41,942 bases of DNA from an uncultured Halieaceae bacterium (GTDB lineage: Bacteria; Pseudomonadota; Gammaproteobacteria; Pseudomonadales; Halieaceae): positions 1 through 41,942 of the forward strand of contig CAJXDE010000006.1 in assembly GCA_913052635.1 (NCBI GenBank), written 5' to 3'. Each line of letters opens with the position of its first letter. Positions within the stretch are counted from its first letter, which is position 1. Positions 1 to 41,588 of this stretch are shown one piece after another. Both the position numbers and the translations under genes were made by a program. Under the pieces are notes generated by a model, which worked only from the letters and a program-made list of their open reading frames with translations, was not told the origin of the DNA and ran no database searches.

Positions 1-3000
1 CGGAATCCGTGGCGTCGATGGCGTGTTGAAGCTCACGGGCGCTGTCCTCTGAACGAGTCAGTACCGTGAGCGCTGCGACATCCTGCCCCACAAAACCATT
101 GCCGATCGCCGCAAGCTCATTGCGCATACTGTCGCCTACCATGACCACACGCTTGCCCTGAAGTTTGTTCAGGTCGGTCTGGCTTGGCGGTAACAGCAGC
201 TCTCCCTCAGTCACGGAACGGTCAAACTTGAGTCCGCCTGAGGGGTGGAAGGTCTCGCCACTGACAATGTCATCAGCGAGGTGAAATACAGTAGACAGCC
301 CAACCTGTTCGTCGGTTGGCATTTTATGCAGGTGAAGCCGGTTCAGGATGCCGGACTCAATCTGTCCAGCCGACTTTTTGGACTCTGCTTTATCAAAGAA
401 GGGATCTGGCGCATCCACAAAGGCTTCCATAAACGCGGTGCGTTGCTCGGCAGTCAGAATGCCGCCATTCACGAGCCGGTCGACCAGCTTACTGGCGATG
501 CCTTCATGCATCAGGAAACGTGATGAGTTGCCCGCGCCGCCGGCATCAATGACCTGACCCACCAAGCGCGACAGCGCTTTGGGCATGTCGTTGCCCGAGG
601 GCAGGTTCGCCACGTCGTTGGCCGCCAATGCCATGATGGTGTCCACGCTGAGGCCTTCCCTGGTGTCACTCAAGATGGCTTTATGCACCTGATTCAGGCG
701 CTTATTCTCCAGTACCAGTCGACCGCGACGGTCAAACAGCCCTGGCGCATCGCCTAGGCCGCGCAGTCGCGCACCATCTACCGGTCCCGGGGCGAGGGCG
801 TTGATTTGGATCTCAGGCCCCAAGTGCCGCGACAGGATCTCTGCCAAGACACGCTGGCCCGCTTTGGAGACGGCATAGTCCCCGCGGTTGGGGTAGGCCA
901 CCGCGACATACTTCTCACCACCGAAGTAGCTCGACACGTTAAGGATGGAACCCTTGCCCTTGTCTTTCATCACCGGGCCGAATTTACGGATCAGTGAGTA
1001 GTTGGAGATTAGGTTGGCTTCCATGGTGCGGTTCCAGTCCGCCAGCGTCATGTCTACCACCATCTCTTCCGCGCCCGAGATACCGGCGTTGTTGATCAGG
1101 AAGTCGACAGTGCCAAAGAGGTCGATGGCGCGGTCATACAGTGCGTCCAATGCCTTGGGGTCGCCCACGTCGATATCGGCCATGATGCTGACCCGCGTCT
1201 CGGCCTGTGGGTAACCAATGCCGCGCAGTTCTTCAACGATTTCGTCCCGCGCTTCTTCCAACTTGGCTGCACTTCGCGCGCTGAGCAGTACTCGACAGCC
1301 GGCAATCGCAAGGTAGCGACCCAACTGCAGACCGATACCCAAGCTGCCTCCCGTAATGACAGCCGTTTTGCCTTTGTGTAAGCCCGGCAATACGCGCATC
1401 AGCGGTGTCGGCATGGACTCCTTACCCGTGGCGCGCTGGATGCTTTTTGGAATCCACAGGTTGATCGGATCCATCTGGCGCACGCGGTTGGTCAGCGTGG
1501 CGGCCCAGTCAGCGGCAAAGGTCAGGTTGTCCTTGTCTTCACTGTCGTAGCGCACCAACTGGTTGGGTCGCACGGCCCATTCCAGCTCGCCTGCGTTGAG
1601 CAGTGTTTCGTCTTCGTGACGCCACCCGCGGATCAGCGCCTCGATGGATGCGCGAATGACTTCATTGAGCAAGTTGCCATGGGTGTCACTGCCATTTGTG
1701 GCGTAGGTGATGGCCGGCGGCTCGCACTTTCCGAACCATCTAGATAGATTGCTGGCCAGCATGCTGGCAAAGGCAACCGGGGCCACAACCTCCTCGCGAA
1801 CAAAGTTCTCGACGTCTTCGTCGGTGGCGCCGCACAGAGAGTGGCCGTAGTGGCCGTTTGGCTTGCGCGGTAACACAATCACACCATCAAGACGCCCAAA
1901 GTGGTCGTCGATGAACTGCATCGTGCGATCGACCGATTCGCGTCGCAGCGGATCAAGGTGTGACAGCTGAATTTCGTCCAGTCCCTTGGTCTGGATCAGT
2001 GAGCGCGCATGGCCAACAGATTCTAGTGAGCGGAAGGCCAGCAGCACATGGGCGCCACTGTTGATCTGACGCTCGGCATAGGTCAAAGCTTGCTCGTAGT
2101 CGGAACCACCCAGAATGAGTACCACGTTGTCGGTGAGGTCTTCGAGGCGCTTATCCGGCCACGACACCAGTTGCGAGCGACTCTGCGCGGGCACTTGCAT
2201 GCCATTTGTCACCTCAACGTGGTGACCTGACACCGCCGCCGACTCCTCAGAGGCCAACCAAACAATGCCGTTGGCGACGTCGGCGGGCGTGGGGTAGCGA
2301 TACTCGAGACCTTCCTCGCCATTGCGTGTGGTAATCATGAGATCACGGAATTCCTGGCTGGTACTGCCAGGGGCGATGTTCTGTAGCTCATCCATCGTGG
2401 CAAAAACGGTATCGATGCGCTCTGACTCGATCGGTCCGGGGAACAGCGTATTCACGCGAATACCGCGCTCCTCACCCAACTCTAGTGCCAATCCCTTACC
2501 CAACGCATTGAGACCCGACTTGGGCACCACGTATGGGATGCGGCCGTAATAGTGGGTGCGCGAGAAAATGGTCGATACATTGACGATGGTGCCGCCGTCA
2601 CTCAGCTGCGCGGCTGCAGCACGCGCCATATTCCAAGGGGCACCTAGTAGATTCATGGCGGAGTCGAACATGGTTTGGTCAGAGCCCGCTGCCCGCATCT
2701 CGACATCCGTGAAAGGAATGTCACGCAGCGTATATTTCGGGCCAGCGGCGCCGGCGTTGTTCACCAGCACGTCGAGCTTGCCAAAGGTGTCCACGGCGCG
2801 CGAGATAATATCGCGACACACCTGCGGATCCGCACAGTCGCCCACAATCGTGGTGATGTTCTCGGCGTCAAAGCCTTCTTCAGAGAGCTCCTCGACAAAG
2901 GCATCCAGCTTGCTCTGGTCGCGGCCGGTCATGGTGACCTTGGCACCTTCCCGGAGCAGGTGGCGTGAGATGTAGCGGCCAATAGAGCCCGCTGCGCCAG

Positions 3001-3085
3001 TCAGAATCACGGATTTGTTCTCGAGCCGGCGCCCCGCGAGAGACTGAGCAATAACAGTGTTGGATAAGTCCGACATATCGTTCAT
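1..3085 (-). CDS. mcr: Malonyl-CoA reductase, bifunctional double-SDR enzyme (3' end outside window)
   Basis: NADPH-dependent two-step reduction of malonyl-CoA to malonate semialdehyde and then 3-hydroxypropionate. I translated the first 1028 codons by hand. The N-terminal SDR domain has TGAAGSIG at about 29-36 and YVVPK at 185-189; the second SDR domain has TGGSLGIG at about 578-585 and YAVSK at 737-741. Stretches such as NVSTIFSR, YYGRIPYV, FPGPIES, NVSSYFGGEK and APGPVDGARLRG match Chloroflexus malonyl-CoA reductase as I remember it, including the spacing of the two domains. The family is about 1200 residues, so roughly 180 are missing at the window edge. The ATG at 3085 was chosen because GGAG lies 7 nt upstream and it overlaps the pcs stop as ATGA; an ATG three codons later is possible. 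In the known enzyme the N-terminal half reduces the semialdehyde and the C-terminal half the thioester. Confidence 0.93.
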   Translation of the reverse strand, partial: MNDMSDLSNTVIAQSLAGRRLENKSVILTGAAGSIGRYISRHLLREGAKVTMTGRDQSKLDAFVEELSEEGFDAENITTIVGDCADPQVCRDIISRAVDTFGKLDVLVNNAGAAGPKYTLRDIPFTDVEMRAAGSDQTMFDSAMNLLGAPWNMARAAAAQLSDGGTIVNVSTIFSRTHYYGRIPYVVPKSGLNALGKGLALELGEERGIRVNTLFPGPIESERIDTVFATMDELQNIAPGSTSQEFRDLMITTRNGEEGLEYRYPTPADVANGIVWLASEESAAVSGHHVEVTNGMQVPAQSRSQLVSWPDKRLEDLTDNVVLILGGSDYEQALTYAERQINSGAHVLLAFRSLESVGHARSLIQTKGLDEIQLSHLDPLRRESVDRTMQFIDDHFGRLDGVIVLPRKPNGHYGHSLCGATDEDVENFVREEVVAPVAFASMLASNLSRWFGKCEPPAITYATNGSDTHGNLLNEVIRASIEALIRGWRHEDETLLNAGELEWAVRPNQLVRYDSEDKDNLTFAADWAATLTNRVRQMDPINLWIPKSIQRATGKESMPTPLMRVLPGLHKGKTAVITGGSLGIGLQLGRYLAIAGCRVLLSARSAAKLEEARDEIVEELRGIGYPQAETRVSIMADIDVGDPKALDALYDRAIDLFGTVDFLINNAGISGAEEMVVDMTLADWNRTMEANLISNYSLIRKFGPVMKDKGKGSILNVSSYFGGEKYVAVAYPNRGDYAVSKAGQRVLAEILSRHLGPEIQINALAPGPVDGARLRGLGDAPGLFDRRGRLVLENKRLNQVHKAILSDTREGLSVDTIMALAANDVANLPSGNDMPKALSRLVGQVIDAGGAGNSSRFLMHEGIASKLVDRLVNGGILTAEQRTAFMEAFVDAPDPFFDKAESKKSAGQIESGILNRLHLHKMPTDEQVGLSTVFHLADDIVSGETFHPSGGLKFDRSVTEGELLLPPSQTDLNKLQGKRVVMVGDSMRNELAAIGNGFVGQDVAALTVLTRSEDSARELQHAIDATDS

Positions 3086-6000
3086 CTAAGCGCTCCGGCT
3101 GATCCAGTTTCGACTTTGGTAATCTCTTCACCGCGTTCGGCTGCGTCACGCAGCGCCCAGGCTCGGTAAAGCTCGTCTTTGGTTTTGAGGCCCATACGCG
3201 GTAGCGCATGGGTCACCACATAATTGGCACCGCCGTGGCGGTTTTCCCACATCGCCTGGTGAATCTCGGCGATGTCTTCGATGGGTCGCGCCAGAGGCGG
3301 CAATACGTCGATCTGCGCGGCGGCGATTCGTTCCTGCATTTCTGCAAATTCACGCGCGGTATTGAGGTGCGTGCCGCGAATCTCCGCGCTGGGCATGATG
3401 ATGCGACGCTGGCGCATCCATACCTGTGGGGCATAGAACGTAAAGCGCTGTCCACTGAGTTCCTCAGCGTAGACCACTTTGCCCACGTTGGGCTTCACCA
3501 GCGAAGTGGCGAGGGCGAGGCCGTCGCGACCCGCACGCTCAAACACCACATCAGGTAAGCCACGCTTGTCGAGGGTGTTGCGCAGGAAGGGCGCGATCGC
3601 CGAACCAATGGGCTTCAAAGTGCGATCCGAGAATAATCGCACGGCTTCCTTAAATGCCTGTGACTCGGTGAACGGGTTGGGCATTTGTGCAAACGGCCCG
3701 GGCGGGTCGTAGTCGTCGCCGAGACGACGCTCAATTTCCTCCAGACTCACCACGCCTTTTACTTGGGCACCAAATCCGAGGGAGTTCACGAACTCACGTT
3801 GTGGGACGGTATCCACGAGAACGGCGATTTGCGCGCCGCGCTGGCAGCCCACTTCGATGGCTTCGATCGCTACCCGGTCCACGATCCCGTCTTCAGCACC
3901 GGGTCCGTAAACAATCAACAGGCTTTGACCCGCACGCAATCCGGCGCGCGTGAACATTTCAGACGGACTCGAGCTCCCTTTCTTACCCATGAACGTAAAG
4001 CGATAACCCGAAGAGGCGCCGTAGAAGGTCAGCACGCCACCTTCGCCCAGTGTCTGGAACGAGCGGGGGAAGGCGGTCTCACCCGCGTGGGACACCACAT
4101 AGTCAACGCTACCGCCTGCTGCGGCTTCTGTGGCTGCGACAAAGCCTTCGCCTTGAGCTTCCCACTTCGCCCACTCTGCGGGGTCATCGGGCACGGGGGT
4201 AAAGGCATCTGACCACTGTGGGGCTTTCCGGTCGACGGCGGCACCGCCGACGGCTTCAACGCGGGCGGCGCGCTCTGCATTAGAGACCATGCCCACTACA
4301 TTGAGGCCACTGCTCACGGCACTGCGCAGGCAGTCATAGCCGGTACCCGTGGAGGCGCCCTCTACGAACAACCGCTTATTCGGCTCGATATCGAGCGTGT
4401 GATAGAGCGCCCGGTGAATCGTGCCCAGCGTCAGCCCATAGGAACCTGCCTCTTCGATACTCAGACTCGGTAGCTTGGGATGCAACTGCGGGCCTTGTAC
4501 CGTCAGGAACTGTGCGTGGCTACCGTCGTTGCGCTCATAGCCTTGAATGCGGAAGTCGGCGGCCATGGGGTCAAGGCCTTGGTCGGGGGAAAGTAGCTCG
4601 CTCTGACCCGAGTAAACGGTGCAGACATCACCGACCGACAAACGGCCCTCGGCAATCAACTCACTGCCGAGACGGACAATCATTGCTGCACCGCCGGAGC
4701 CCGTGACTTGCACATCGGCATCACGCGCATCAAAGGGTGATACCGGAATGCCGGTGATGGCCCAGATGTCATTGAAGTTCATCTCAGAGGCGAGTACATA
4801 CACCAGCGCTTCATTGGGCTCGGGCTCTGGTGTCTCAAAGATTAGCTTGATCTCAGCGTCGACCGGGTCACCGTGAGCGGGTTTGCCGTCTTCGGCAGAC
4901 TTCATTACGCCGTAGCCATATTGATAACGGGGAACGGGTGTGACCCCGGGGAAGAAACTGGCGCCCATGGGCAGCAGTTCACCGGATGCCAGCAACTCAT
5001 CGACCTGTTCACCTGAAGCGGTGGGCGACACCTCAACGAACTGAGTTGGCAGGGGTGCGCTGCGCTTCTCGAGGAAAGCAGTGATCCCGGTTGGGCCAGA
5101 CTCAGGGTCACAGACTGCCTCGGCAAAAAGCTCGGCCTCATGCAGCAGTCCAGCAGCCTGGCCTTTCTCCGCGCCCAAGGCGACGGCATTCAGCACGCGT
5201 GCTACCTGCTTTTCACGGCCGCTGGCGCGAATTTGTGACAGCGCCTGCTGTAATGCCGGCTGCTCAAGGATGGCCTCGGCATAGGGAATGGCCTCATCAC
5301 GTGCGGCGAGCGCCTTCTGGTGCTCCTCCTGTGCCGCGGCCAGCGGGCCTTGTTGGGCAAAGTAGTCGCGGAGCCGCTCCATCGCGATCTCAACGGGCGA
5401 GGCCGCAGCTTCCGTTACGACTTCGTCTACCAAACCACAGTCGATTGCCTCAGCGGTGGAAATATTGCGGCCACTCACCATCAAACGCAGCGCTTCGGCC
5501 ATGCCAGCCTCTCCGCGGCGCCGATGTAGCTTGCGCACCAGACGTTGCGTACCGCCGTAGCCCGGTAGCAGATTCAAATTGATTTCCGGCTGGCCAAACT
5601 GCGCGTGCTCTGCGGCAATCACGTAGGAGCAGGCCAGCACCAGTTCGTTACCGCCACCGAGTGCGGGGCCATTGACCGCCGCGATCACCGGTCTGCCAAG
5701 TTGCTCCAGAGCGGCAAATGCCGCCTGTGCCGCATTGGGCGGGGTGCGGGCTGATTCCAAATCGCCGGCTTCACCCACCTCCAGCAGTTCTTTCACGTCA
5801 GCACCGGCAACAAAGGCACCGCGGGCGCCGGTAATCACCACTGCGTCCACGTCATCCTGATGCTCAAGCTGTTGCACGACGGTGTGAAGTTCATCGAGCG
5901 TGCGCTCATTGAGTGCGTTGACCGGCGGATGGTTGATCACCAACAGCGCGACCTTGTGATTGTCGTCCAAGCGATGGGTTTCGACGCGCAGGTAGCGCCA

Positions 6001-8496
6001 GGTCTGAATGATCTGCCGCGCCTCTGCCAGTCGGCCAAAGTCTCGCCATTGCGCGACGGCGCCCTGAATCTCTTCTACCGACTCGGGGTTTCGGAGCGTA
6101 GACAGATCGCCCAAAGGTTGGTCGAGCAAGATGGCGCGCAACGTGCGACGCATGTACTTGCCCGAGCGGGTCTCGGGGAACGCCGACACCACTAAAAAGT
6201 CTGATGGTACTGCGGTGGCGCCTTTTTCAGTGCGCACCAGATTCTGCAGTCGCGCAAGATCCTCATCTGAGAGCTTGCGGCCTGCTGCAGCTACGAGGAA
6301 CGCAACGGGGGTCTCACCTTTCTCGTCATGGGGCGCGCCCACCACGACCACGTTACCCACCGGGGAATCCTGTCGCAGCGTTTTATCGCGCAGGATCGCA
6401 CCTTCGATTTCCTCAGTGCCAATGCGGTGGCCCGAGACGTTGATCACGTCATCCGAGCGGCCATGCAGCGTGAAGGCGCCTCCATCACCTCGGCGCGCAT
6501 AGTCGCCCTGAGTGTAGGTGAGTTCGCCGTCCCAACGCTTGAAGTACACCTCGGCAAAGCGGTCGATATCGCCCTGCCAGTCAGCGGTACCCAGTGCGTC
6601 ACCCGCGCCCCACAATGTTCTAGCCAGGTAAGGGTAGGGCTGGGTAATCACCAGTTCACCTTTCTCACCGGCTTCGGCTTCTCGCCACTGGCTGACGCTG
6701 CCCGTATCGCTAGTTTGCTCAACGATACGCACCTGCGCCTGAATCCAGGGTAGTGGCCAGGTCTTGGCGTCGGCTTCCAGCGGCTTAAAGTCACCCCATG
6801 GGCAGGAGAATACGATGCCGCCATGCTCGGTGGCCCAGTAGGAGTTGATGTAGTGCGAGCAGATGTTCTCCATCGCAAACTTCTGTACCGCCGGTGACAC
6901 CGGTTCTGCGCAGAAGGTGCCGACTTTAAGTGTCGACATGTCGTAGCGAGACATTTCCTGCGCGCTCGCAGGATCGGTCATGACCGCCTTCAGGAAGGTG
7001 GAGCCGGCCTTGAACAGCGTGACCTGATTGCGCTCGATAATGGAGGCAAAGCGGCCCGCATGGGGGAAGAGGGGGGAGCCCTCGGCAATGACTGTGGACA
7101 TGCCAAATGCCAGTGGCGCCGCGATCAGATACGACTGACCGGTAATCCAACCCGGGTCGCCAATTACATATAGACAGTCATCCTGATTGGCGTTGAACAC
7201 GGTTCGCATGGTGTGGGTAATGCCTGACAGCCAGCCACCGTGAGTGTGAACCACGCCCTTGGGTTTGCCGGTAGAGCCTGAGGTGTAGATGATAAAAAGT
7301 GGCCAGTCGGCCTCGATCGGCACTGCCGGGATGCTGGAGCCAACGGCTTTCCAGAAGGCATTGTCGTCCAGACTATCCAGTGAACCGCGATCCGCCACGC
7401 CGGCGTCCGCCAAAAATGACGCTTCTGCCTCGTAGACCAGATTGTGCGACCAGCGATCACGGCTGTGCTCGACAATGTCGTTACCCGTGTAGCGCACAAC
7501 AATCACGTTGGTCACGGCGTGACTAACGCCGGCCAACTCGCTGGCCACGGTGGTGCGAAGTTCCGCAATAATTTCGGGGGCCGTGCCTCGCTCGCGCTCC
7601 AGCGCCAAACCCAGCTCGCGCATGACATCGGCGCGCTCGAGTGTGATCTCTCCGGCAACGGCCTCGGTCACCTGTGTCTCGAGTCGTTCAGCGACATCGG
7701 CGGGCAGACGGGACTTCAGTGTCTCAGACAGCGCCTGCAGCGCCGCGGGGCGAGGCACATAGTTGTCCAACGCGGGGTCGGTGTAGGTGCTTTTGTAGGG
7801 GACCACCTCGGCATTGCGATAGCCACCATCAGCGGTAATCACTACTTTCGCGCCGGCATCATGAATGCGGTCAGACAATGTTTTCGCAGAGAAGCCGCCG
7901 AAAACGGGGGTGTAAATCACCCCAAGCCGCTGTGCGGCCAAAATGTAAAAAATCTGATCGAGGATGTTGGGCAGGTTCAGCGCAATGCGGTCCCCAGTGC
8001 TGAGATCCAGGCTTTTGAGTACCCGCGCGCGCAGGGCAACTTCAACCAACAATTCCCGGTAAGAGAGGCGCTGCTCGAAAACTGGGCCGCCGCGCCCGTC
8101 ATTTTTGGAGGGATCCCAGCGGTCACCTTCGAAGACGAGCGCCTGGTTTTTGCCGCGGCCAGACAACACGTGACGATCGAGAAGGTTGAAGCAGGCGTTG
8201 GTCTGCCCGTCGACAAACCAGCGATAGAAAGGTGCCGCGTCTGCGTCAAGCGCTGACGACCAAGGGGTCCAGCTCGTGTCAGCAGAGCCCTCCGCGCCGG
8301 ATGCTGCATGCCAGCCCTGCCAAGCGTCGGCACCCGGTTGCGAGACCCACTGCTCACCGTCGGTGTCGTACCAGTGCAGTTCTTTTGCAGCGATGGCTGC
8401 GTGAAAAGCGGCAGGATCGCTTACAGCTTTTGCACGCGCCTGATCTTCGTCTTGCTGGGTGCTCAGAATGCCCCAGTCTCCGTCGTGATGTGTCAC
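3082..8496 (-). CDS. pcs: Propionyl-CoA synthase, trifunctional synthetase-hydratase-reductase fusion
   Basis: Converts 3-hydroxypropionate to propionyl-CoA through 3-hydroxypropionyl-CoA and acryloyl-CoA, using ATP, CoA and NADPH. The 1804 residues hold three modules. An acyl-CoA synthetase (about 1-840) has the P-loop TSGSTGKPKG at 405-414 and the A10 lysine K780 in TRSGKYMRR. A crotonase (about 845-1150) keeps both catalytic glutamates, E951 in GGGNE and E971 in GQPEI. A medium-chain reductase module (about 1170-1804) includes MNFNDIWAITG near 1239. Order and length match Chloroflexus propionyl-CoA synthase (about 1820 residues). The synthetase has an extra helical stretch at about 225-390, before the P-loop. 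The start is GTG with GGAGG 4 nt upstream; no ATG lies nearby. The gene precedes mcr with a 4-nt overlap, so both enzymes are probably made from one message. The translation shows no break. Confidence 0.95.
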   Translation of the reverse strand: MTHHDGDWGILSTQQDEDQARAKAVSDPAAFHAAIAAKELHWYDTDGEQWVSQPGADAWQGWHAASGAEGSADTSWTPWSSALDADAAPFYRWFVDGQTNACFNLLDRHVLSGRGKNQALVFEGDRWDPSKNDGRGGPVFEQRLSYRELLVEVALRARVLKSLDLSTGDRIALNLPNILDQIFYILAAQRLGVIYTPVFGGFSAKTLSDRIHDAGAKVVITADGGYRNAEVVPYKSTYTDPALDNYVPRPAALQALSETLKSRLPADVAERLETQVTEAVAGEITLERADVMRELGLALERERGTAPEIIAELRTTVASELAGVSHAVTNVIVVRYTGNDIVEHSRDRWSHNLVYEAEASFLADAGVADRGSLDSLDDNAFWKAVGSSIPAVPIEADWPLFIIYTSGSTGKPKGVVHTHGGWLSGITHTMRTVFNANQDDCLYVIGDPGWITGQSYLIAAPLAFGMSTVIAEGSPLFPHAGRFASIIERNQVTLFKAGSTFLKAVMTDPASAQEMSRYDMSTLKVGTFCAEPVSPAVQKFAMENICSHYINSYWATEHGGIVFSCPWGDFKPLEADAKTWPLPWIQAQVRIVEQTSDTGSVSQWREAEAGEKGELVITQPYPYLARTLWGAGDALGTADWQGDIDRFAEVYFKRWDGELTYTQGDYARRGDGGAFTLHGRSDDVINVSGHRIGTEEIEGAILRDKTLRQDSPVGNVVVVGAPHDEKGETPVAFLVAAAGRKLSDEDLARLQNLVRTEKGATAVPSDFLVVSAFPETRSGKYMRRTLRAILLDQPLGDLSTLRNPESVEEIQGAVAQWRDFGRLAEARQIIQTWRYLRVETHRLDDNHKVALLVINHPPVNALNERTLDELHTVVQQLEHQDDVDAVVITGARGAFVAGADVKELLEVGEAGDLESARTPPNAAQAAFAALEQLGRPVIAAVNGPALGGGNELVLACSYVIAAEHAQFGQPEINLNLLPGYGGTQRLVRKLHRRRGEAGMAEALRLMVSGRNISTAEAIDCGLVDEVVTEAAASPVEIAMERLRDYFAQQGPLAAAQEEHQKALAARDEAIPYAEAILEQPALQQALSQIRASGREKQVARVLNAVALGAEKGQAAGLLHEAELFAEAVCDPESGPTGITAFLEKRSAPLPTQFVEVSPTASGEQVDELLASGELLPMGASFFPGVTPVPRYQYGYGVMKSAEDGKPAHGDPVDAEIKLIFETPEPEPNEALVYVLASEMNFNDIWAITGIPVSPFDARDADVQVTGSGGAAMIVRLGSELIAEGRLSVGDVCTVYSGQSELLSPDQGLDPMAADFRIQGYERNDGSHAQFLTVQGPQLHPKLPSLSIEEAGSYGLTLGTIHRALYHTLDIEPNKRLFVEGASTGTGYDCLRSAVSSGLNVVGMVSNAERAARVEAVGGAAVDRKAPQWSDAFTPVPDDPAEWAKWEAQGEGFVAATEAAAGGSVDYVVSHAGETAFPRSFQTLGEGGVLTFYGASSGYRFTFMGKKGSSSPSEMFTRAGLRAGQSLLIVYGPGAEDGIVDRVAIEAIEVGCQRGAQIAVLVDTVPQREFVNSLGFGAQVKGVVSLEEIERRLGDDYDPPGPFAQMPNPFTESQAFKEAVRLFSDRTLKPIGSAIAPFLRNTLDKRGLPDVVFERAGRDGLALATSLVKPNVGKVVYAEELSGQRFTFYAPQVWMRQRRIIMPSAEIRGTHLNTAREFAEMQERIAAAQIDVLPPLARPIEDIAEIHQAMWENRHGGANYVVTHALPRMGLKTKDELYRAWALRDAAERGEEITKVETGSAGALR

Positions 8497-22753: not shown

Positions 22754-23932
22754 ATGGACACTGCATATTCAACCGAAGATCTTGCGTTTCGCGACGAGGT
22801 TCGCGGGTTTTTCGACGAGGCCTATACGCCTGAGCTCCAGGCGCGGCTGCGTTCTCCCGATTATAAAAATGCCATCGAGGATTGGCAGCGAAAGCTTTAC
22901 GACAAGGGCTGGGTCGCGCCTAATTGGCCGGCCGAATTCGGTGGCACGGACTGGACCGCCACGCAAAAGTACATTTACGAAAGCGAGCGTTCGCTGGCGG
23001 GTATTCCTAACGTCGTGCCATTTGGTCTCGTTATGGTGGCCAACGTCATCATGGCCTACGGCACCGATGAGCAGAAAGAGTACTTCTTGCCGCGCATCCT
23101 GAAGAGTGAAGACTGGTGGTGCCAGGGTTACTCGGAGCCCGGTTCGGGCTCAGATCTTGCGAGCTTGAAGACCAAGGCCGAGCGGGATGGTGACGATTTC
23201 ATCATTAACGGCGCCAAGATCTGGACGACCTACGCCCAGTATGCAGACTGGATTTTCTGTTTGGTGCGCACCGATAACTCAGGCAAAAAACAGGAAGGCA
23301 TCACCTTCATCCTGATTGATATGAAGAGCGAGGGGATCAAGGTCAATCCGATCATCTCGATCGACAATCATCACAGCCTCAATGAGGTGGAATTCAACAA
23401 TGTCCGTGTGCCCGCTAAGAACGTGGTGGGTGAGATCGGCAAGGGCTGGACCGTTGCTAAAGCACTGCTAGCCCACGAGCGCACGGGCATTGCCGGCGTC
23501 GCCGACGTGAAGCGGGCTGTGCGCGTGATCAAAGAGGTCGCTGCCAAGGAAGAAAATGGTGGGCAGCGTTTGATGGATGATCCCGGTTTTCAGCAGCGCC
23601 TCGCCGACATTGAGGTGGAACTGATGGCGCTTGAGTTCACCGAGTTGCGCACCTTGGCCACTCAAGCTGCAGGCGGTTTTCCCGGGCCGGAGTCATCGCT
23701 CCTCAAGATCAAGGGCACCGAGCTCCAGCAGGCCACCCAGGAGCTGCTGATGGAGATCGCGGCCTACTACCAAGGTGTATTGCCTGTTGATCTGGATCCC
23801 GAAGCGCTGGGCCACGAGTTTGCCACGGAGGCGCGCCGCAATTACATGTACGGACGCGCAGCTACAATCTACGGCGGCTCTAATGAGGTACAGAAAAACA
23901 TCATCGCCAAGTACGTACTCGGTCTTGAGTAA
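22754..23932 (+). CDS. Acyl-CoA dehydrogenase, putative catalytic subunit of a pair
   Basis: A 392-residue FAD-dependent acyl-CoA dehydrogenase introducing an alpha-beta double bond. GYSEPGSGSDLASL (about 125-138) and IINGAKIWTTYAQYADWIF are FAD- and substrate-site motifs. The C-terminal loop reads IYGGSNEVQKNIIA, without the glutamate used by MCAD; instead HERTG has a glutamate at 242, at the helix-G position used by isovaleryl-CoA dehydrogenase. This pattern, with a second dehydrogenase gene 14 nt downstream, matches the alpha2beta2 dehydrogenases described for steroid side-chain breakdown (ChsE type). GAGG precedes the ATG. The 205-nt region upstream shows no promoter I would commit to. 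Confidence 0.88.
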   Translation: MDTAYSTEDLAFRDEVRGFFDEAYTPELQARLRSPDYKNAIEDWQRKLYDKGWVAPNWPAEFGGTDWTATQKYIYESERSLAGIPNVVPFGLVMVANVIMAYGTDEQKEYFLPRILKSEDWWCQGYSEPGSGSDLASLKTKAERDGDDFIINGAKIWTTYAQYADWIFCLVRTDNSGKKQEGITFILIDMKSEGIKVNPIISIDNHHSLNEVEFNNVRVPAKNVVGEIGKGWTVAKALLAHERTGIAGVADVKRAVRVIKEVAAKEENGGQRLMDDPGFQQRLADIEVELMALEFTELRTLATQAAGGFPGPESSLLKIKGTELQQATQELLMEIAAYYQGVLPVDLDPEALGHEFATEARRNYMYGRAATIYGGSNEVQKNIIAKYVLGLE

Positions 23933-23946
23933 GGGGAGCGCTAACC

Positions 23947-25086
23947 ATGAATTTTGATTTCTCTGAAGAGCAACAAATGGTCCGCGACTCGATCGCGCGC
24001 TTTGTTCAGGACGACTATGACTGGGATACCCGCAAGGCTATCGTGGCCTCCGATCAGGGTATGAGCCGGGATAATTGGCAACTGTTCGCCGAGTTGGGCT
24101 GGCTGTCGATCCCCTTCGCTGAGGAGCACGGGGGGTTCGGCGGCAATATCGTCGACCTGTCAGTGGTGATGGAAGAGCTGGGCAAGGGCCTGGTGGTCGA
24201 GCCCTATTTCCCGACGGTGGTGTTGTTTGGCGGGCTGATCAAGCGTGCCGGCAGCGAGGCGCAACAGGCTGAATGGCTGCCCCGCATCATTGGTGGCGAG
24301 CTATTGGGTGCGTTTGCTTACGTAGAGCGCCAAAGCCGCTTTGCGCTGAATGATTGTCAGACCAACGCCACCAAGTCTGGCGACGGTTATGTCCTCAACG
24401 GTGAAAAGGTGGTGGTGTTCAATGGCGAGCAGGCGGACCACTTGGTTGCACTGGCCCGCACTTCTGGAGATCAGTCAGACAGCGACGGATTATCGCTGTT
24501 TGTCGTCGATGCGGCGGCTGCCGGCGTCGACAAGATGAGTTATGCCATGATGGACGGCCAGCGCGTGGCAAACATCACTTTCAAGGACGTCTCGCTGAGC
24601 GCGGATGCGCTGCTGGGCGAGGAGGGCGCTGCGCTGTCAGTGGTCGATGCGCTGACAGACGAGGCGATCATTGCACTCTCGGCAGAGGCCGTCGGCATTA
24701 TGGGCGTGCTGAACGCCAAGACCCTCGAGTACACAAAAACCCGCGAGCAGTTTGGTGTGGCGATTGGTTCCTATCAGGCACTGCAGCACCGCATGGTGGA
24801 CACCATGATGGCCTACGAGCAGAGCAAGTCGCTATTGTTTAAGGCACTCTGTGAGTACAAGCAAGATCCGGCGATGGCTGCCGAGACCGTTCATGCGCTC
24901 AAGGTGTTGATCGATCGGAACGGTAAGCATGTGTTTGGTGAGGCGATTCAGATGCACGGCGGTATGGGCATGACCGATGAGCTGGATATTGGCCACTACG
25001 CCAAGCGACTGATGATGATCAATACGACGTTTGGTGATGCGACCTATCATCGAAACCGCTACATCGAGACCGCTTACGCGGCCTGA
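23947..25086 (+). CDS. Acyl-CoA dehydrogenase-like partner lacking recognisable catalytic glutamate
   Basis: A 379-residue acyl-CoA dehydrogenase fold (N-terminal FSEEQQMVRDSIARFV; EYTKTREQFGVAIGSYQALQ; IQMHGGMGMTDE). The C-terminal loop reads FGDATYHRN, with no glutamate, and the helix-G segment is TDEAIIALSAE rather than an ER motif, so neither of the two usual base positions is filled. It is probably the non-catalytic or FAD-contributing subunit of a heteromer with the preceding gene; that is inference from family pattern. GGGGAG lies upstream of the ATG, and the genes are 14 nt apart. Confidence 0.86.
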   Translation: MNFDFSEEQQMVRDSIARFVQDDYDWDTRKAIVASDQGMSRDNWQLFAELGWLSIPFAEEHGGFGGNIVDLSVVMEELGKGLVVEPYFPTVVLFGGLIKRAGSEAQQAEWLPRIIGGELLGAFAYVERQSRFALNDCQTNATKSGDGYVLNGEKVVVFNGEQADHLVALARTSGDQSDSDGLSLFVVDAAAAGVDKMSYAMMDGQRVANITFKDVSLSADALLGEEGAALSVVDALTDEAIIALSAEAVGIMGVLNAKTLEYTKTREQFGVAIGSYQALQHRMVDTMMAYEQSKSLLFKALCEYKQDPAMAAETVHALKVLIDRNGKHVFGEAIQMHGGMGMTDELDIGHYAKRLMMINTTFGDATYHRNRYIETAYAA

Positions 25087-29758: not shown

Positions 29759-31081
29759 TTACTGGAGACGTGTGGGCGAGGCCAGCCCCGAAAAGAAGAC
29801 GGAGAAGTACTCGCCTGCACTGTGGTTGATGTCGTCGATAGCCTGCCAGGCATCCAGATCCATGGCGGCGTTCAGCGCCCCCGTCAGCAGTTGGATCACG
29901 ATGCCCGGGGGAATATCCCGGAACTGACGCGCCTCGGCCGCCAGCGCGACGTAGTTCTCCAGCGTGGCGTGAACTGAAGCCAATCGTCCGAGCAGGCGCT
30001 GACGCACCTCGGGTGGCAGGGCGGTGATGGCGTTGAAGTGCACCAGCGGGCCCTGATCAGAATTTTGCAGTACGAAGATATGCCGACAGGCTGCCTCGAG
30101 CTTTGCCGCAGGGGGTGCTTCCAGTTGCTCGATGCGTGCGACGACCTGCTCCAGCTGATCCAGCGTGTAGTCAAAACACTGGGTCAGCAGTGCTTCTTTA
30201 TTGGCAAAGTGATAATAGAAAGCACCCTTGGAGACCTGCAGTTGCTCAGCGATTTCATCGAGGGACGTCCCGCTAAAGCCTTTTTGGTTGAAGCAGCGGG
30301 TGCCGGCTTTGAGAAACGCTTCCTGCTTGAGCCGGTTCTGTGCCTCGCGGTCAAAGGCTTCATCCTCAGCAGGGAGCGGCGGGATGGTCGCCGCGTCGCC
30401 GGCCGCCGCCCCATCGGGTGATGACAGGAGCCCGTGGGTGAGCAGATCACGCAATACATTCACTACCCCTCGCGCCTGCTCACGGGGCATTTCATAAAGC
30501 CAATAGAACGACCAGTCCAGGGCACCCACGATGGCGCGAATGGTAACCACCGGGTTGCAGGGCCGGATCTGTCCCGCCTCGATCCCCCGGTTCAGCAGAT
30601 CAATCAGCCGTCGCAGCAGCCGGCGATATTCTTCCTCGAGTACTTCTCGATGCTCGGCTTTCAGTGAGGCCACCTCGAGTGGGGCGGCATAAAAATCGCC
30701 CTCGCCGTCGAGGGAGCGCAGGGTGGTATTGATCTGGCTCTCCAGAAACGCCATCAAACATTCGGTGGCGCCTTGATAAGCCTCCTCGGCCCTGTCGAGT
30801 TGATCATGGGCTTGCCGCATGTTGGCGTCGTAGCACTGGTAGATAAGATCTTCCTTGGTCGCTACGTAGTAATAGAGGCTGGTTTTGGTGAGCCCCAGTC
30901 GGCTGGCCACATCGGCTAATGTAGTGGAGCGTGCCCCTTTGGTATTGAATAGTTTCGCTGCACAGGACAGCACTGCCGCGCGTTTGGTCTCGCGTTGCAG
31001 GCCACGACTGAAGGGGGAGCGATTGGCGGGGATCGAGGTGTCCAAAATATCCTTGAGTAACGCAGGCCCGGGACGGGTCAT
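29759..31081 (-). CDS. Double TetR-family transcriptional regulator (two complete HTH-ligand modules)
   Basis: A 440-residue protein with two TetR modules in tandem. The first HTH is at about 33-80 (AAKLFNTKGARSTTLADVAS, then TKTSLYYYVATKEDLI); the second at about 252-299 (TRCFNQKGFSGTSLDEIAEQ, then SKGAFYYHFANKEALL). Each is followed by a helical region of about 140 residues, and a linker rich in Ala, Pro and Asp (about 222-245) joins them. Ordinary TetR proteins are 190-220 residues and dimerise, so this chain could be a built-in pseudo-dimer. I chose the ATG at 31081; a TTG two codons earlier is possible. It precedes tesB and diverges from a crotonase, which suggests control of acyl-CoA genes. 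Confidence 0.9.
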   Translation of the reverse strand: MTRPGPALLKDILDTSIPANRSPFSRGLQRETKRAAVLSCAAKLFNTKGARSTTLADVASRLGLTKTSLYYYVATKEDLIYQCYDANMRQAHDQLDRAEEAYQGATECLMAFLESQINTTLRSLDGEGDFYAAPLEVASLKAEHREVLEEEYRRLLRRLIDLLNRGIEAGQIRPCNPVVTIRAIVGALDWSFYWLYEMPREQARGVVNVLRDLLTHGLLSSPDGAAAGDAATIPPLPAEDEAFDREAQNRLKQEAFLKAGTRCFNQKGFSGTSLDEIAEQLQVSKGAFYYHFANKEALLTQCFDYTLDQLEQVVARIEQLEAPPAAKLEAACRHIFVLQNSDQGPLVHFNAITALPPEVRQRLLGRLASVHATLENYVALAAEARQFRDIPPGIVIQLLTGALNAAMDLDAWQAIDDINHSAGEYFSVFFSGLASPTRLQ

Positions 31082-31086
31082 TCTCA

Positions 31087-31100
31087 AAATTCGATAATTT
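31087..31100. promoter_or_regulatory. Candidate operator for the double TetR regulator
   Basis: AAATT-CGAT-AATTT is a perfect 5-bp inverted repeat with a 4-nt centre, lying between the predicted promoter and the start codon of the TetR gene and covering the probable transcription start. It is the natural place for autorepression. Binding by this protein is inference. Confidence 0.42.
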
Positions 31101-39088: not shown

Positions 39089-40243
39089 ATGGGGATCACA
39101 CTCTCCGACTGTTACAACACAGCGCAGTTTAGACGACTGGCCAAGGCCCGATTGCCGGGCCCGATCTTCCATTACATCGACGGTGCCGCCGATGACGAAG
39201 TGACTTACCGGCGCAATACCGAAGCGTATGAGGCCTGTGATCTGGTCCCTAACGTGTTGACGGGGGTCGAACACATCGATCTGTCGACAACCGTTATGGG
39301 TATCCCCATGGACATGCCTTTGTTTCTTTCGCCGACTGCGTTGCAGCGACTGTTCCACCATGACGGAGAACGCGCGGTGGGCCGCGCTGCGGAGGCTTTC
39401 AAGACGCTCTTCGGTATTTCTTCTCTGGCCACAGTGAGCATCGAGGAAATTGGCGAGACGATTCGCACCCCCAAGATCTTTCAGCTCTACTATCATAAGG
39501 ACAAAGCGCTCACCTGGGGCATGATCGATCGGTGCCTCGAAGCAGGCTTTGATGCGCTGGCGTTAACGGTCGATACTATCGTTGGTGGCAATCGTGAGCG
39601 CGATCTGTGGACGGGGTTTACCTCGCCACCGCGACTCACCCCCTCCAGCTTGGTAAGTTTCGCCACGCATCCCAACTGGACGCTCAATTACCTGCTCAGG
39701 GAGCCCTTTGAGCTCTCTAATCTGAAGGACCACATTCCCGAGGGCTCCAACGTGAGTATCTCGGTATCCGACTACTTCTCCACCATGCTCGACCAGACCA
39801 TGGACTGGGACGCCGCCGCGGAAGTGCGTAAGCGGTGGGGTAAGGCGTTTTGCTTGAAAGGGATTATGTCGGTGGAGGATGCCACGAAGGCGGTCGACAT
39901 CGGTGCAGATGCGATTATGGTATCCAATCACGGTGGACGCCAACTTGATGGCAGCCGCTCCCCCTTTGATCAGCTGGCGGAAATTGTCGATGCCGTTGGT
40001 GATCAGATTGATGTGATCTGTGATGGCGGCATACAGCGAGGCACCCATGTCCTCAAAGCGCTCTCCGTTGGCGCAAAGGCCTGCTCCGGCGGGCGGTGGT
40101 ATCTGTACGCGCTGGCTGGCGCTGGCCAGGCTGGTGTGGAGCTAGCGCTTACTAACATGCAGAGTGAGCTGGTGCGGGATATGAAGCTGATGGGCGCGAA
40201 AACCATTAGCGACCTGAGCCGGGCGAACCTCCGTTTCCGTTAA
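39089..40243 (+). CDS. FMN-dependent alpha-hydroxyacid dehydrogenase (LldD/glycolate oxidase family)
   Basis: A 384-residue TIM-barrel flavoprotein oxidising an L-2-hydroxyacid to the 2-oxoacid. The FMN region has SPTALQRLFHHDGE and FQLYYHKDK; the active-site SNHGGRQLDGSRSP carries the base H281 and substrate arginine R284; VICDGGIQRGTHVLKAL binds the flavin phosphate. Length fits LldD (396). GGAG lies 7 nt before the ATG. L-lactate is the most common substrate, but mandelate and glycolate enzymes share these motifs. It is followed by aceE, which would use the pyruvate formed from lactate; that link is inference. Confidence 0.88.
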   Translation: MGITLSDCYNTAQFRRLAKARLPGPIFHYIDGAADDEVTYRRNTEAYEACDLVPNVLTGVEHIDLSTTVMGIPMDMPLFLSPTALQRLFHHDGERAVGRAAEAFKTLFGISSLATVSIEEIGETIRTPKIFQLYYHKDKALTWGMIDRCLEAGFDALALTVDTIVGGNRERDLWTGFTSPPRLTPSSLVSFATHPNWTLNYLLREPFELSNLKDHIPEGSNVSISVSDYFSTMLDQTMDWDAAAEVRKRWGKAFCLKGIMSVEDATKAVDIGADAIMVSNHGGRQLDGSRSPFDQLAEIVDAVGDQIDVICDGGIQRGTHVLKALSVGAKACSGGRWYLYALAGAGQAGVELALTNMQSELVRDMKLMGAKTISDLSRANLRFR

Positions 40244-40379
40244 CCTCTGCCTCCAGGCGCCGCGTTTATGATCGCGCTCTCGCGTTCGCAGCGCCAAATC
40301 TCCGAAAAATACCGATTCGTCGCTTTTATTAACATTCCATAATAGAACTTTATTACTTTTTCGGGCGATAATTGATATC

Positions 40380-40408
40380 TTTATGCCTCTCAGCATGCGT
40401 TTTATAGT
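40380..40408 (+). promoter_or_regulatory. Candidate aceE promoter
   Basis: TTTATG at 40380-40385 and TATAGT at 40403-40408 are separated by 17 nt within an AT-rich stretch. The -10 box matches at 5/6 and the -35 box is weak (3/6), which fits a regulated promoter. The leader would be about 120 nt. Confidence 0.42.
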
Positions 40409-40423
40409 TCCAATTAAGAACTA
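40405..40423. promoter_or_regulatory. Perfect inverted repeat overlapping the aceE -10 box
   Basis: TAGTTC-CAATTAA-GAACTA is a 6-bp perfect inverted repeat with a 7-nt spacer, overlapping the predicted -10 element. Its position suits a repressor operator. It is not the PdhR box I know from E. coli, so the regulator is unknown. Confidence 0.45.
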
Positions 40424-40434
40424 ATAAGGGATTG

Positions 40435-40450
40435 CGGCGATATTTCGCCG
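40435..40450 (+). repeat. Stem-loop in the aceE leader
   Basis: CGGCGA-TATT-TCGCCG forms a perfect 6-bp stem with a 4-nt loop. No T-tract follows, so it is not a typical terminator; it may stabilise the leader or be part of a control element. Confidence 0.4.
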
Positions 40451-40535
40451 TATGCAAGCAGCTAGACCGGGTTTGCGATCCTTGATGGGTTTACAGCGTT
40501 TTCTAGATATCAGCGCATGTATATGGGGGTTTAGC

Positions 40536-41588
40536 GTGGAAAAGTTGGATGCCATCGAAGTAGATGAGTGGACCCAATCCCTCGACTCCGTTTTACGCTT
40601 CAACGGGCCTGCTGCGACCAGTCAGTTATTGAGGCATCTCTCCGAGCACGCGCAGTCCTCCCGAGTGCCTTTGCCCAGCGCGATTACCACCCCCTTCCGT
40701 AATACCATCTCCCCGGAAGATGAGCGCCCGATGCCTGGCGATCTGTTCATGGAGCGGCGCATTCGTTCGCTGGTGCGTTGGAATGCGATGGCCATGGTGA
40801 TGCGTGCCAACGACAACGAAGACGGTCTGGGTGGACATATCTCGAGCTTTTCCTCCAGCGCGACGCTGTATGACGTCGGGATGAATCACTTCTTTCGTGG
40901 CACCGCGAACGGGCACCCGGGGGACTTGGTGTATTACCAGGGTCACAGTGCGCCAGGTATGTACGCGCGCTCATTCCTCGAGGGTGTGATCAGTGAAGAC
41001 CAACTGGAGAATTTTCGCCGCGAGGTTGGCGGCGGAGGTCTATCGTCGTACCCGCACCCTTGGCTAATGCCGGATTACTGGCAGTTCCCCACTGTGTCGA
41101 TGGGCCTCGGGCCGATTCAGGCGATTTATCAAGCCCACGTCATGAAGTATCAGAGCAAGCGTGGTCTGGTTGATCATCGCGACCGCAAAATCTGGTGTTT
41201 TCTGGGAGACGGTGAGTGTGACGAGCCCGAGTCGCTCGGTGCCATCGCGCTGGCCGGTCGCGAGCGTCTGGGCAATCTCCACTTCGTGATCAACTGTAAC
41301 CTGCAGCGCCTCGATGGGCCGGTGCGGGGTAATGGCAAGATCATTCAGGAGCTAGAGGGTGTTTTTCGCGGAGCGGGTTGGCAAGTTATCAAGGTGGTGT
41401 GGGGTCGCAAGTGGGACCCCCTGATTGAGCGGGATCAGACAGGCCTGCTGCAGAAAATCATGGACGATGTGTGTGATGGCGAGTTACAGAACTGCAAGTT
41501 CAATGGCGGTGCCTACACCCGGGAGCACTTCTTCGGGAAGTATCCCGAGACGCTGGAGTTGGTAAAAGATCTGAGCGACGACGACTAG
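40536..41588 (+). CDS. aceE: Pyruvate dehydrogenase E1 component AceE, N-terminal 350 codons only
   Basis: The homodimeric E1 of the pyruvate dehydrogenase complex, which decarboxylates pyruvate with thiamine diphosphate. GHISSFSSSATLYDVGMNHF (about 100-119) and the diphosphate motif GDGECDE (224-230) through NCNLQ (253-257) are clear. The complete enzyme has about 890 residues; this frame ends at codon 350, after KDLSDDD, where homologues continue with an IWRLNRGGHDP-like segment. The stop belongs to unrelated sequence beyond about 41585. So the gene is cut by a junction rather than truncated by a simple mutation. GTG at 40536 was chosen: GGGGG lies 6 nt upstream, and the 28 codons upstream look non-coding. 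Confidence 0.9.
   Translation: MEKLDAIEVDEWTQSLDSVLRFNGPAATSQLLRHLSEHAQSSRVPLPSAITTPFRNTISPEDERPMPGDLFMERRIRSLVRWNAMAMVMRANDNEDGLGGHISSFSSSATLYDVGMNHFFRGTANGHPGDLVYYQGHSAPGMYARSFLEGVISEDQLENFRREVGGGGLSSYPHPWLMPDYWQFPTVSMGLGPIQAIYQAHVMKYQSKRGLVDHRDRKIWCFLGDGECDEPESLGAIALAGRERLGNLHFVINCNLQRLDGPVRGNGKIIQELEGVFRGAGWQVIKVVWGRKWDPLIERDQTGLLQKIMDDVCDGELQNCKFNGGAYTREHFFGKYPETLELVKDLSDDD

What the first reader, a model, noticed from the sequence alone, without database searches (positions are those of the whole stretch)
1..8496. Malonyl-CoA to propionyl-CoA module of the 3-hydroxypropionate bi-cycle in a gammaproteobacterium
mcr (both SDR active sites seen) and pcs (synthetase lysine, both hydratase glutamates and the reductase module seen) together suffice to turn malonyl-CoA into propionyl-CoA with NADPH and ATP. 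The full bi-cycle is known from Chloroflexus; I recall these two genes being noted in OM60/NOR5 bacteria and Erythrobacter without the rest of the cycle. The window shows no mesaconyl-CoA, malyl-CoA lyase or propionyl-CoA carboxylase genes. The module may serve mixotrophic CO2 assimilation, storage of excess reductant, or use of 3-hydroxypropionate or acrylate from DMSP breakdown. Which one is the open question.
Basis: partly seen in the sequence, partly recalled or inferred. Interest (0 to 1): 0.78.

Follow-up and report, generated by a model that had tools for sequence, protein, structure and literature searches.

The report
Light-linked CO2-assimilating module in Luminiphilus
A common marine light-harvesting bacterium carries two adjacent genes for turning malonyl-CoA into propionyl-CoA, probably a light-fed side route for taking up CO2 while eating organic matter; the gene pair was already known in its relatives.

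Summary
Bases 1-8496 encode a complete trifunctional propionyl-CoA synthase (Pcs) and a bifunctional malonyl-CoA reductase (Mcr) cut by the contig end, overlapping by 4 bp, motifs intact, pcs dN/dS about 0.03. The genome is a Luminiphilus MAG (OM60/NOR5). It also holds carboxylase-like, epimerase-like, mutase and MeaB genes and two reaction-centre genes; the bi-cycle's mesaconyl-CoA isomerase was not found. Best reading: acetyl-CoA to succinyl-CoA with uptake of two CO2 and NADPH beside photoheterotrophy, not autotrophy. A 2022 paper claims a complete 3-hydroxypropionate/4-hydroxybutyrate cycle in Luminiphilus. Here the true-type dehydratase occurs in one Luminiphilus clade (11 of 13 genomes) and in 0 of 11 of the window's clade (typed mostly by score); the own genome's homologue has two of four ligand positions changed. 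In 79 Halieaceae genomes Pcs and reaction-centre genes go together (both 23, Pcs only 1, reaction centre only 3, neither 52). Of 30 pcs rows with adjacent mcr and known state, 27 have reaction-centre genes; a separate pcs clade, with no mcr beside it in the 8 of 9 rows decided, has none in 7 searched. The module is known; its scope is sharpened. Evolutionary events are too few for a proper test.

The parts
3082..8496 (-). pcs, propionyl-CoA synthase, 1804 aa, GTG start
   Evidence: near full-length match to 6eqo, 1863 bits; 36 of 39 genus genomes hold it; dN/dS 0.029-0.040
6037..8496 (-). Pcs acyl-CoA synthetase part (about aa 1-820); SGSTGKPKG at 7255-7281, TRSGKYM with K780 at 6151-6171
   Evidence: acetate-CoA ligase models; motifs; K780 invariant in 6 rows
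5098..5973 (-). Pcs enoyl-CoA hydratase part (about aa 842-1133); E951 (codon within 5644-5658) and E971 (within 5578-5595)
   Evidence: enoyl-CoA hydratase models; both Glu invariant in 6 rows; motifs
3085..4944 (-). Pcs enoyl-CoA reductase part (about aa 1185-1804); GASTGTG at 4339-4359
   Evidence: crotonyl-CoA reductase model TIGR01751, 176 bits, below its cut-off of 379; 4gi2 match over aa 1185-1503
2..3085 (-). mcr, malonyl-CoA reductase, first 1028 aa, cut by the contig end; ATGA overlap with pcs
   Evidence: 8hi4 836 bits, 8hjw 791 bits; overlap
2186..3031 (-). Mcr N-terminal SDR half (about aa 19-300): TGAAGSIG 2978-3001, YVVPK 2519-2533
2..1390 (-). Mcr C-terminal SDR half (from about aa 566, incomplete): TGGSLGIG 1331-1354, YAVSK 863-877

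Best explanation
The pair makes malonyl-CoA -> (malonate semialdehyde) -> 3-hydroxypropionate (Mcr, 2 NADPH), then 3-hydroxypropionate -> 3-hydroxypropionyl-CoA -> acryloyl-CoA -> propionyl-CoA (Pcs, ATP and 1 NADPH; stoichiometry is established knowledge of these enzymes, recalled). Malonyl-CoA comes from acetyl-CoA carboxylase (assumed, not searched). Propionyl-CoA then goes through a propionyl-CoA carboxylase, epimerase and mutase to succinyl-CoA. Net: acetyl-CoA plus two inorganic carbons to succinyl-CoA. In this bacterium with reaction-centre genes it works as a light-fed anaplerotic CO2 uptake and electron sink during growth on C2 or reduced substrates, not as a closed autotrophic cycle. 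Shown from sequence: enzyme identities, intact motifs, purifying selection, presence of carboxylase-like, epimerase-like, mutase, MeaB and reaction-centre genes, no mesaconyl-CoA isomerase over the cut-off, no true-type 4-hydroxybutyryl-CoA dehydratase found in an 84% complete genome. Inferred: direction, flux, light dependence, carboxylase substrate. Lack of RuBisCO in Luminiphilus is taken from PMC9802188 (passage), not tested.
For: Homology and motifs. Own genome: two Photo_RC genes on C135 and C143; MCM on C193 beside an epimerase-like gene and MeaB; carboxyltransferase beside a biotin carboxylase/BCCP fusion on C156. In G295 the carboxyltransferase and MCM matches lie 3.4 kb apart. TIGR04253 over its cut-off in 0 of 12 genomes, best 94 of 725 bits. 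Halieaceae, 79 genomes: both 23, Pcs only 1, Photo_RC only 3, neither 52; Fisher p 1.2e-15, not corrected for kinship; Photo_RC rang in 1 of 14 control genomes, Synechococcus. Photo_RC in 36 of 47 named pcs genomes, of four phyla by record title (the loci come from the best 80 of 203). Mcr and Pcs tree distances agree, Spearman 0.92, 33 loci. PMC10674011 (passages): in Porphyrobacter ULC335 genes of the 3-hydroxypropionate bi-cycle (not named in the passages) are up by day, and CO2 co-assimilation is proposed.
Against: In the genus at 80% completeness or more, six genomes with Pcs (G299, G300, G306, G308, G314, G325; 82-88% complete) show no Photo_RC and three with Photo_RC show no Pcs (G313, G318, G320); in the family G348 and G349 also have Photo_RC without Pcs, G343 Pcs without Photo_RC. 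Three rows of the wide set have mcr but no Photo_RC (L031, L046, L078; the L078 mcr is only 33% identical). The tree has only 3 changes of mcr and 5 of puf; the independent-pairs test cannot reach 0.05. No PpsR- or FNR-type motif upstream of pcs in the window; PpsR-type in 3 of 76 loci, about what shuffles give (0.01-0.12 each), FNR-type in 0. pcs and puf are not neighbours: about 34 kb apart in G297, 130 kb in G221, over 200 kb in G294 and G295, 1.5 Mb in G329. An isocitrate lyase (partial, 530 bits to 6g1o) and aceK are present, so acetate assimilation does not need this route. PMC12694420 (passages) reports K14469 (recalled: the KEGG number of Pcs) expressed only at night, at low level, in an estuary, host not given in the passage.
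Confidence: 0.66

Rival explanations
1. The pair is part of a complete 3-hydroxypropionate/4-hydroxybutyrate cycle, so Luminiphilus is photoautotrophic (published claim, PMC9802188).
For: PMC9802188 (passages) reports all enzymes in eight Luminiphilus MAGs. A true-type 4-hydroxybutyryl-CoA dehydratase exists in 11 of 39 genus genomes: the L107 protein has 722 bits to 6vjr and keeps CFQRC and the HRxSYvC segment of that chain.
Against: It is confined to one of three Luminiphilus clades of the Pcs tree (11 of 13; window clade 0 of 11; third clade 0 of 11; G329, apart, without it). The type was settled residue by residue for two proteins only, by sequence identity for nine more, for the rest by PF03241 score (221-242 against 174-191 bits). 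The window genome's homologue has two of four ligand positions changed (C to Y, C to A; positions recalled) and sits beside CitE-like and MmgE/PrpD-like genes. In L108 ten neighbours of the true type were scanned: a Baeyer-Villiger-type monooxygenase, transporters, a carboxyltransferase, an amidase and others, no other cycle enzyme by name. The true type also occurs in G241, which has no Pcs. The own genome is 84% complete, so absence there is not proof.
Confidence: 0.06
2. The pair belongs to a full 3-hydroxypropionate bi-cycle as in Chloroflexus.
For: Both proteins are homologues of the bi-cycle enzymes.
Against: TIGR04253 is over its cut-off in 0 of 12 genomes, G000 among them. Malyl-CoA lyase and mesaconyl-CoA hydratase were not searched.
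Confidence: 0.02
3. The pair serves use of 3-hydroxypropionate or acrylate (for example from DMSP), Pcs being the working enzyme.
For: Pcs takes 3-hydroxypropionate (established). pcs genes without a neighbouring mcr do occur: in L014 with an iron alcohol dehydrogenase, an aldehyde dehydrogenase and an acrylyl-CoA reductase family gene (TIGR02823 over cut-off, AcuI equivalog below); in L139 with an iron alcohol dehydrogenase next door; in L015 with a zinc-type dehydrogenase and an acetate-CoA ligase.
Against: Those pcs genes form another clade (SH-aLRT 100), with Photo_RC in 0 of the 7 of 9 rows searched. The window's pcs overlaps mcr, which such a use would not need. Among the listed models of the window proteins scanned, none over its cut-off is a DMSP or acrylate gene (lists capped at 25, a few ORFs not scanned).
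Confidence: 0.12
4. The pair makes propionyl-CoA as a building block (odd-chain or branched lipids, mixed polyhydroxyalkanoate) and so stores reductant.
For: Propionyl-CoA is the direct product. The legend of a Halieaceae metabolism figure in PMC10100682 names PHB (passage).
Against: A gene set for propionyl-CoA to succinyl-CoA is in the genome. No storage gene was searched here.
Confidence: 0.1

Closest known systems
[quoted passage not shown] solved chains 8hi4, 8hjw, 6eqo; their source organisms are recalled)
   Same: domain order, catalytic motifs, 47-53% Pcs identity to the Chloroflexota and Alphaproteobacteria loci
   Different: no mesaconyl-CoA isomerase over cut-off; the two genes are adjacent, whereas no mcr lies in the fetched flanks of the three Chloroflexus-type loci L060, L063, L066
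Partial 3-hydroxypropionate route of Erythrobacter NAP1 / Porphyrobacter (PMC10674011, passages)
   Same: key enzymes in an aerobic anoxygenic phototroph, CO2 co-assimilation proposed
   Different: another Pcs clade than the window's; gammaproteobacterial host here
Luminiphilus HP/HB cycle claim (PMC9802188, passages)
   Same: same genus, same mcr and pcs step
   Different: the defining dehydratase was not found in the window's clade
Kentron partial bi-cycle (PMC6593406, passages)
   Same: incomplete bi-cycle in Gammaproteobacteria proposed for assimilation
   Different: the reverse set: Kentron lacks mcr and pcs and keeps most of the rest

Membership tests
Propionyl-CoA synthase | synthetase, hydratase and reductase domains in one chain, colinear with a solved Pcs | tested here: met
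Propionyl-CoA synthase | synthetase-motif lysine, two crotonase glutamates, NADPH-site glycine motif | tested here: met
   (roles of the residues recalled)
Propionyl-CoA synthase | 3-hydroxypropionate-, ATP-, CoA- and NADPH-dependent activity | not testable with these tools
   needs an assay
Bifunctional malonyl-CoA reductase | tandem SDR halves colinear with solved Mcr, both YxxxK motifs | tested here: met
Bifunctional malonyl-CoA reductase | complete C-terminus | tested here: inconclusive
   cut by the contig end at 1028 aa; complete at 1217 aa in L016, L018, L022
Complete 3-hydroxypropionate bi-cycle | mesaconyl-CoA C1-C4 isomerase (TIGR04253) | tested here: not met
   0 of 12 over cut-off, own genome best 85 of 725 bits; own MAG 84% complete
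HP/HB cycle | true 4-hydroxybutyryl-CoA dehydratase with cluster ligands | tested here: not met
   own homologue has two of four ligand positions changed; window clade 0 of 11 by score; own MAG 84% complete
HP/HB cycle | succinyl-CoA reductase and 4-hydroxybutyryl-CoA synthetase | not tested
   no genome searches left; not among ten neighbours scanned beside the dehydratase in L108
Acetyl-CoA to succinyl-CoA CO2-uptake route | propionyl-CoA carboxylase, epimerase, mutase | tested here: met
   genes of these families present, carboxylase substrate not settled by sequence
Aerobic anoxygenic phototroph | type II reaction-centre L and M genes | tested here: met
   two Photo_RC genes in G000; bacteriochlorophyll genes not searched

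The most novel reading that the evidence does not exclude
mcr-pcs is a self-contained two-gene cassette that spread among photoheterotrophs of Pseudomonadota, Gemmatimonadota and Myxococcota as a RuBisCO-free light-driven CO2 sink, functionally apart from a second Pcs lineage without a neighbouring mcr that serves 3-hydroxypropionate or diol use in non-phototrophs; one Luminiphilus clade later added 4-hydroxybutyryl-CoA dehydratase.
Probability: 0.4. Interest if true: 0.7.

Novelty: new member of a known kind. Interest (0 to 1): 0.45.

Why it matters
OM60/NOR5 bacteria are named among the dominant marine aerobic anoxygenic photoheterotrophs (abstract of PMC3666943 in the listing). Whether they only save carbon in light or also take up CO2 changes how they count in carbon budgets. 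The results predict a limited, light-fed anaplerotic CO2 uptake rather than autotrophy, suggest that a published autotrophy claim applies to at most one clade, and give a test that named culturable relatives can answer.

Tried and rejected
PpsR- and FNR-type motif scan upstream of pcs: none in the window; 3 of the 76 loci listed had a PpsR-type match (shuffle expectation 0.01-0.12 each, so not above chance), 0 an FNR-type match. No shared third gene: among 27 loci, pcs in 27, mcr in 26 as an ORF, next best gene in 8. The first Pcs tree held three wrong-frame rows (L064, L088, L091) with branches of 8-10; they were dropped and the tree rebuilt. Rows without a decided mcr state (pcs near a contig end: L033, L034, L061, L085, L089) were left out of the mcr count, and nine rows without a Photo_RC state out of the puf count; 44 of 58 rows bear both. 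'No mcr' means none in the fetched flanks (up to 10 kb); mcr elsewhere in those genomes was not searched. The family-wide Pcs search was run at too loose an E-value (78 of 79 genomes hit); most hits were acetyl-CoA synthetases matching only within model positions 347-834, so I counted only matches outside that stretch: 24 of 79, of which G317 rests on a fragment of positions 1-308. One search was given 47 of the 80 named loci; the 33 left out are mostly Halieaceae; the 80 are themselves the best of 203. Independent-pairs test: inconclusive. No structure was predicted. Proteorhodopsin, RuBisCO, malyl-CoA lyase, accA-D and PHA synthase were not searched (12 of 12 genome searches used).

Full report
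What is there. One search places the window at the start of contig C6 of a 2.39 Mb MAG (84% complete, 0.47% contamination, 214 contigs). On the minus strand lie pcs (3082-8496, 1804 aa) and mcr (2-3085, 1028 aa seen), overlapping by ATGA. Pcs aligns over residues 18-1783 with the solved chain 6eqo (1863 bits), Mcr with 8hi4 and 8hjw (836 and 791 bits). Active-site motifs are intact, and K780, E951 and E971 of Pcs are invariant in six rows. Against five relatives dN/dS of pcs is 0.029-0.040; mcr shows dN 0.013-0.030 at dS 0.57-1.73 against three.

Whose genome. The named scan (best 80 of 203 kept) puts the nearest Pcs in Luminiphilus/Halieaceae MAGs (90-97% identity in the best segment; L016-L024). 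In the genus, at 80% completeness or more, Pcs is in 36 of 39 genomes (missing G313, G318, G320). Of the other window proteins scanned many are housekeeping: smpB, fur, recN, hrcA-grpE-dnaKJ, dapB, aceK, nadA. The last ORFs (39089-41588) and some small ones were not scanned.

Route downstream. The genome holds methylmalonyl-CoA mutase with an epimerase-like (glyoxalase-fold) gene and MeaB on C193, and a carboxyltransferase (best solved matches 1x0u, 310 bits, and propionyl-CoA carboxylase beta chains, 298 bits and less) next to a biotin carboxylase/BCCP fusion on C156. In G295 the carboxyltransferase and mutase matches lie 3.4 kb apart, with ORFs of 924 and 136 aa between them (those ORFs were not scanned). 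Mutase is in 48 of 49 genomes searched. So acetyl-CoA can become succinyl-CoA with two carboxylations; acetyl-CoA carboxylase is assumed. A partial isocitrate lyase is also present (530 bits to 6g1o), so the route is not needed for acetate assimilation as such.

What it is not. The bi-cycle's mesaconyl-CoA isomerase model (TIGR04253) is over cut-off in 0 of 12 genomes, own best 85 of 725 bits. [quoted passage not shown] PMC10100682 (section 12 read) finds none of six canonical pathways complete in six Halieaceae isolates. I tested the defining dehydratase. PF03241 matches 29 of 49 genomes, as two kinds of protein. One (221-242 bits; 11 genus genomes and G241) is represented by L107, which has 722 bits to 6vjr (recalled as the Nitrosopumilus enzyme) and keeps its CFQRC and HRxSYvC segments. 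The other (174-191 bits; 17 genomes, the window's among them) is represented by the own protein, 299 bits, with two of four ligand positions changed (ligand positions recalled from the Clostridium enzyme and read off the alignments). Besides these two, nine proteins were placed by identity and the rest by score. On a Pcs tree the true type is in 11 of 13 genomes of one clade (the two without it, G300 and G306, are 86 and 83% complete and also lack Photo_RC), 0 of 11 of the window's clade and 0 of 11 of the third; G329 stands apart without it. Ten neighbours scanned in L108 include a Baeyer-Villiger-type monooxygenase, transporters and a carboxyltransferase, and no other cycle enzyme by name; the monooxygenase is kept in L102, L103, L107 and L115. 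So the cycle claim should not be carried over to the window's clade, and even in the other clade the gene's setting looks catabolic. Succinyl-CoA reductase was not searched.

Link to phototrophy. In 79 Halieaceae genomes (90% complete or more, plus the own one): both Pcs and Photo_RC 23, Pcs only 1 (G343), Photo_RC only 3 (G313, G348, G349), neither 52; Fisher p 1.2e-15 without correction for kinship. Photo_RC rang in 1 of 14 control genomes, Synechococcus. Against it: in the genus at 80% completeness, six genomes with Pcs have no Photo_RC match (G299, G300, G306, G308, G314, G325; 82-88% complete). Of 47 named pcs genomes given (of 80), 36 have Photo_RC; those without are L031, L046, L078, L082, L086, L087, L088, L089, L092, L093, L095. 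Adjacent mcr was scored by tblastn in the fetched flanks. Of 44 rows with both states known: mcr and Photo_RC 27, Photo_RC without adjacent mcr 7 (all Chloroflexota), neither 7, mcr without Photo_RC 3. Without Chloroflexota rows it is 26, 0, 7 and 3.

Two kinds of Pcs. The cleaned tree (58 rows) has a clade of OM60 bacteria and MAGs labelled Woeseiaceae, Lysobacterales, Myxococcota and Longimicrobiales (SH-aLRT 100) that holds the window; a clade of nine rows (L087 and L093 Azospirillum, L086, L089, L092, L095, G343, G127, G099; SH-aLRT 100) with no mcr in the flanks of the eight decided rows (L089 undecided) and Photo_RC in 0 of 7 searched (G127 and G099 not searched); and a Chloroflexota/Sphingomonadales/Gemmatimonas/Rhodopila group (86). 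One row of the window's clade, L082, also has neither adjacent mcr nor Photo_RC. In the second clade three loci were looked at: L014 has an iron alcohol dehydrogenase, an aldehyde dehydrogenase and an acrylyl-CoA reductase family gene near pcs, L015 (the L095 organism) a zinc-type dehydrogenase and an acetate-CoA ligase, L139 an iron alcohol dehydrogenase next to it. This fits 3-hydroxypropionate or diol use but is not uniform. G343, the one Halieaceae genome of the 79 with Pcs but no Photo_RC, is of this clade. Mcr and Pcs tree distances agree (Spearman 0.92 over 33 loci; 0.73 in the window's clade alone), so the two mostly travel together, and no third gene is shared widely.

Limits. The tree needs only 3 changes of mcr and 5 of puf, so the independent-pairs test cannot reach significance. 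Most genomes are MAGs. No photosynthesis-type regulator motif stood out, and pcs and puf are not neighbours. Function, direction and light dependence are inferred. PMC10674011 (passages) supports the reading in a relative with the same key enzymes (day-time rise of bi-cycle genes, not named there); PMC12694420 (passages) speaks against it: K14469 (recalled as the Pcs number) expressed only at night, at low level, host not given in the passage.

Verdict. The finding is real and its reading holds, but the module is known in this clade and in Erythrobacter relatives (recalled, and PMC10674011, PMC9802188). What is added is its near-fixed presence in Luminiphilus, the split of Pcs into two settings, and a sharper limit on the claim of photoautotrophy. 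I did not meet these three points in print in the searches (an open-licence library; most listed papers were seen as listings only).

Noticed in passing
L106:9116-10678 (own genome G000:C10): A 4-hydroxybutyryl-CoA dehydratase paralogue with two cluster-ligand positions changed, in a run with CitE-like, MmgE/PrpD-like and GntR genes; by score also in 16 other genus genomes; function unknown.
   Followed up: partly
L107, L108, L115: A true-looking 4-hydroxybutyryl-CoA dehydratase beside a Baeyer-Villiger-type monooxygenase in one Luminiphilus clade; L107 has 722 bits to 6vjr.
   Followed up: partly
L037-L039, L041, L042, L044-L046, L062: MAGs labelled Woeseiaceae, Lysobacterales, Myxococcota, Longimicrobiales and Pseudomonadales carry Pcs 64-68% identical to the window's with adjacent mcr; 8 of these 9 have reaction-centre genes (not L046). 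Bin purity was not checked.
   Followed up: partly
window 29759-31087 (-): A 442-aa protein with two TetR-type regulator stretches in one chain, next to a tesB-like gene.
   Followed up: no
window 22754-25086 (+): Two acyl-CoA dehydrogenases resembling the pimeloyl-CoA dehydrogenase large and small subunits (below cut-off), followed by an SDR gene and aceK.
   Followed up: no
L014, L015, L139: pcs genes without a neighbouring mcr, beside iron alcohol dehydrogenase genes in L014 and L139 and a zinc-type dehydrogenase in L015: a likely separate use of Pcs.
   Followed up: partly
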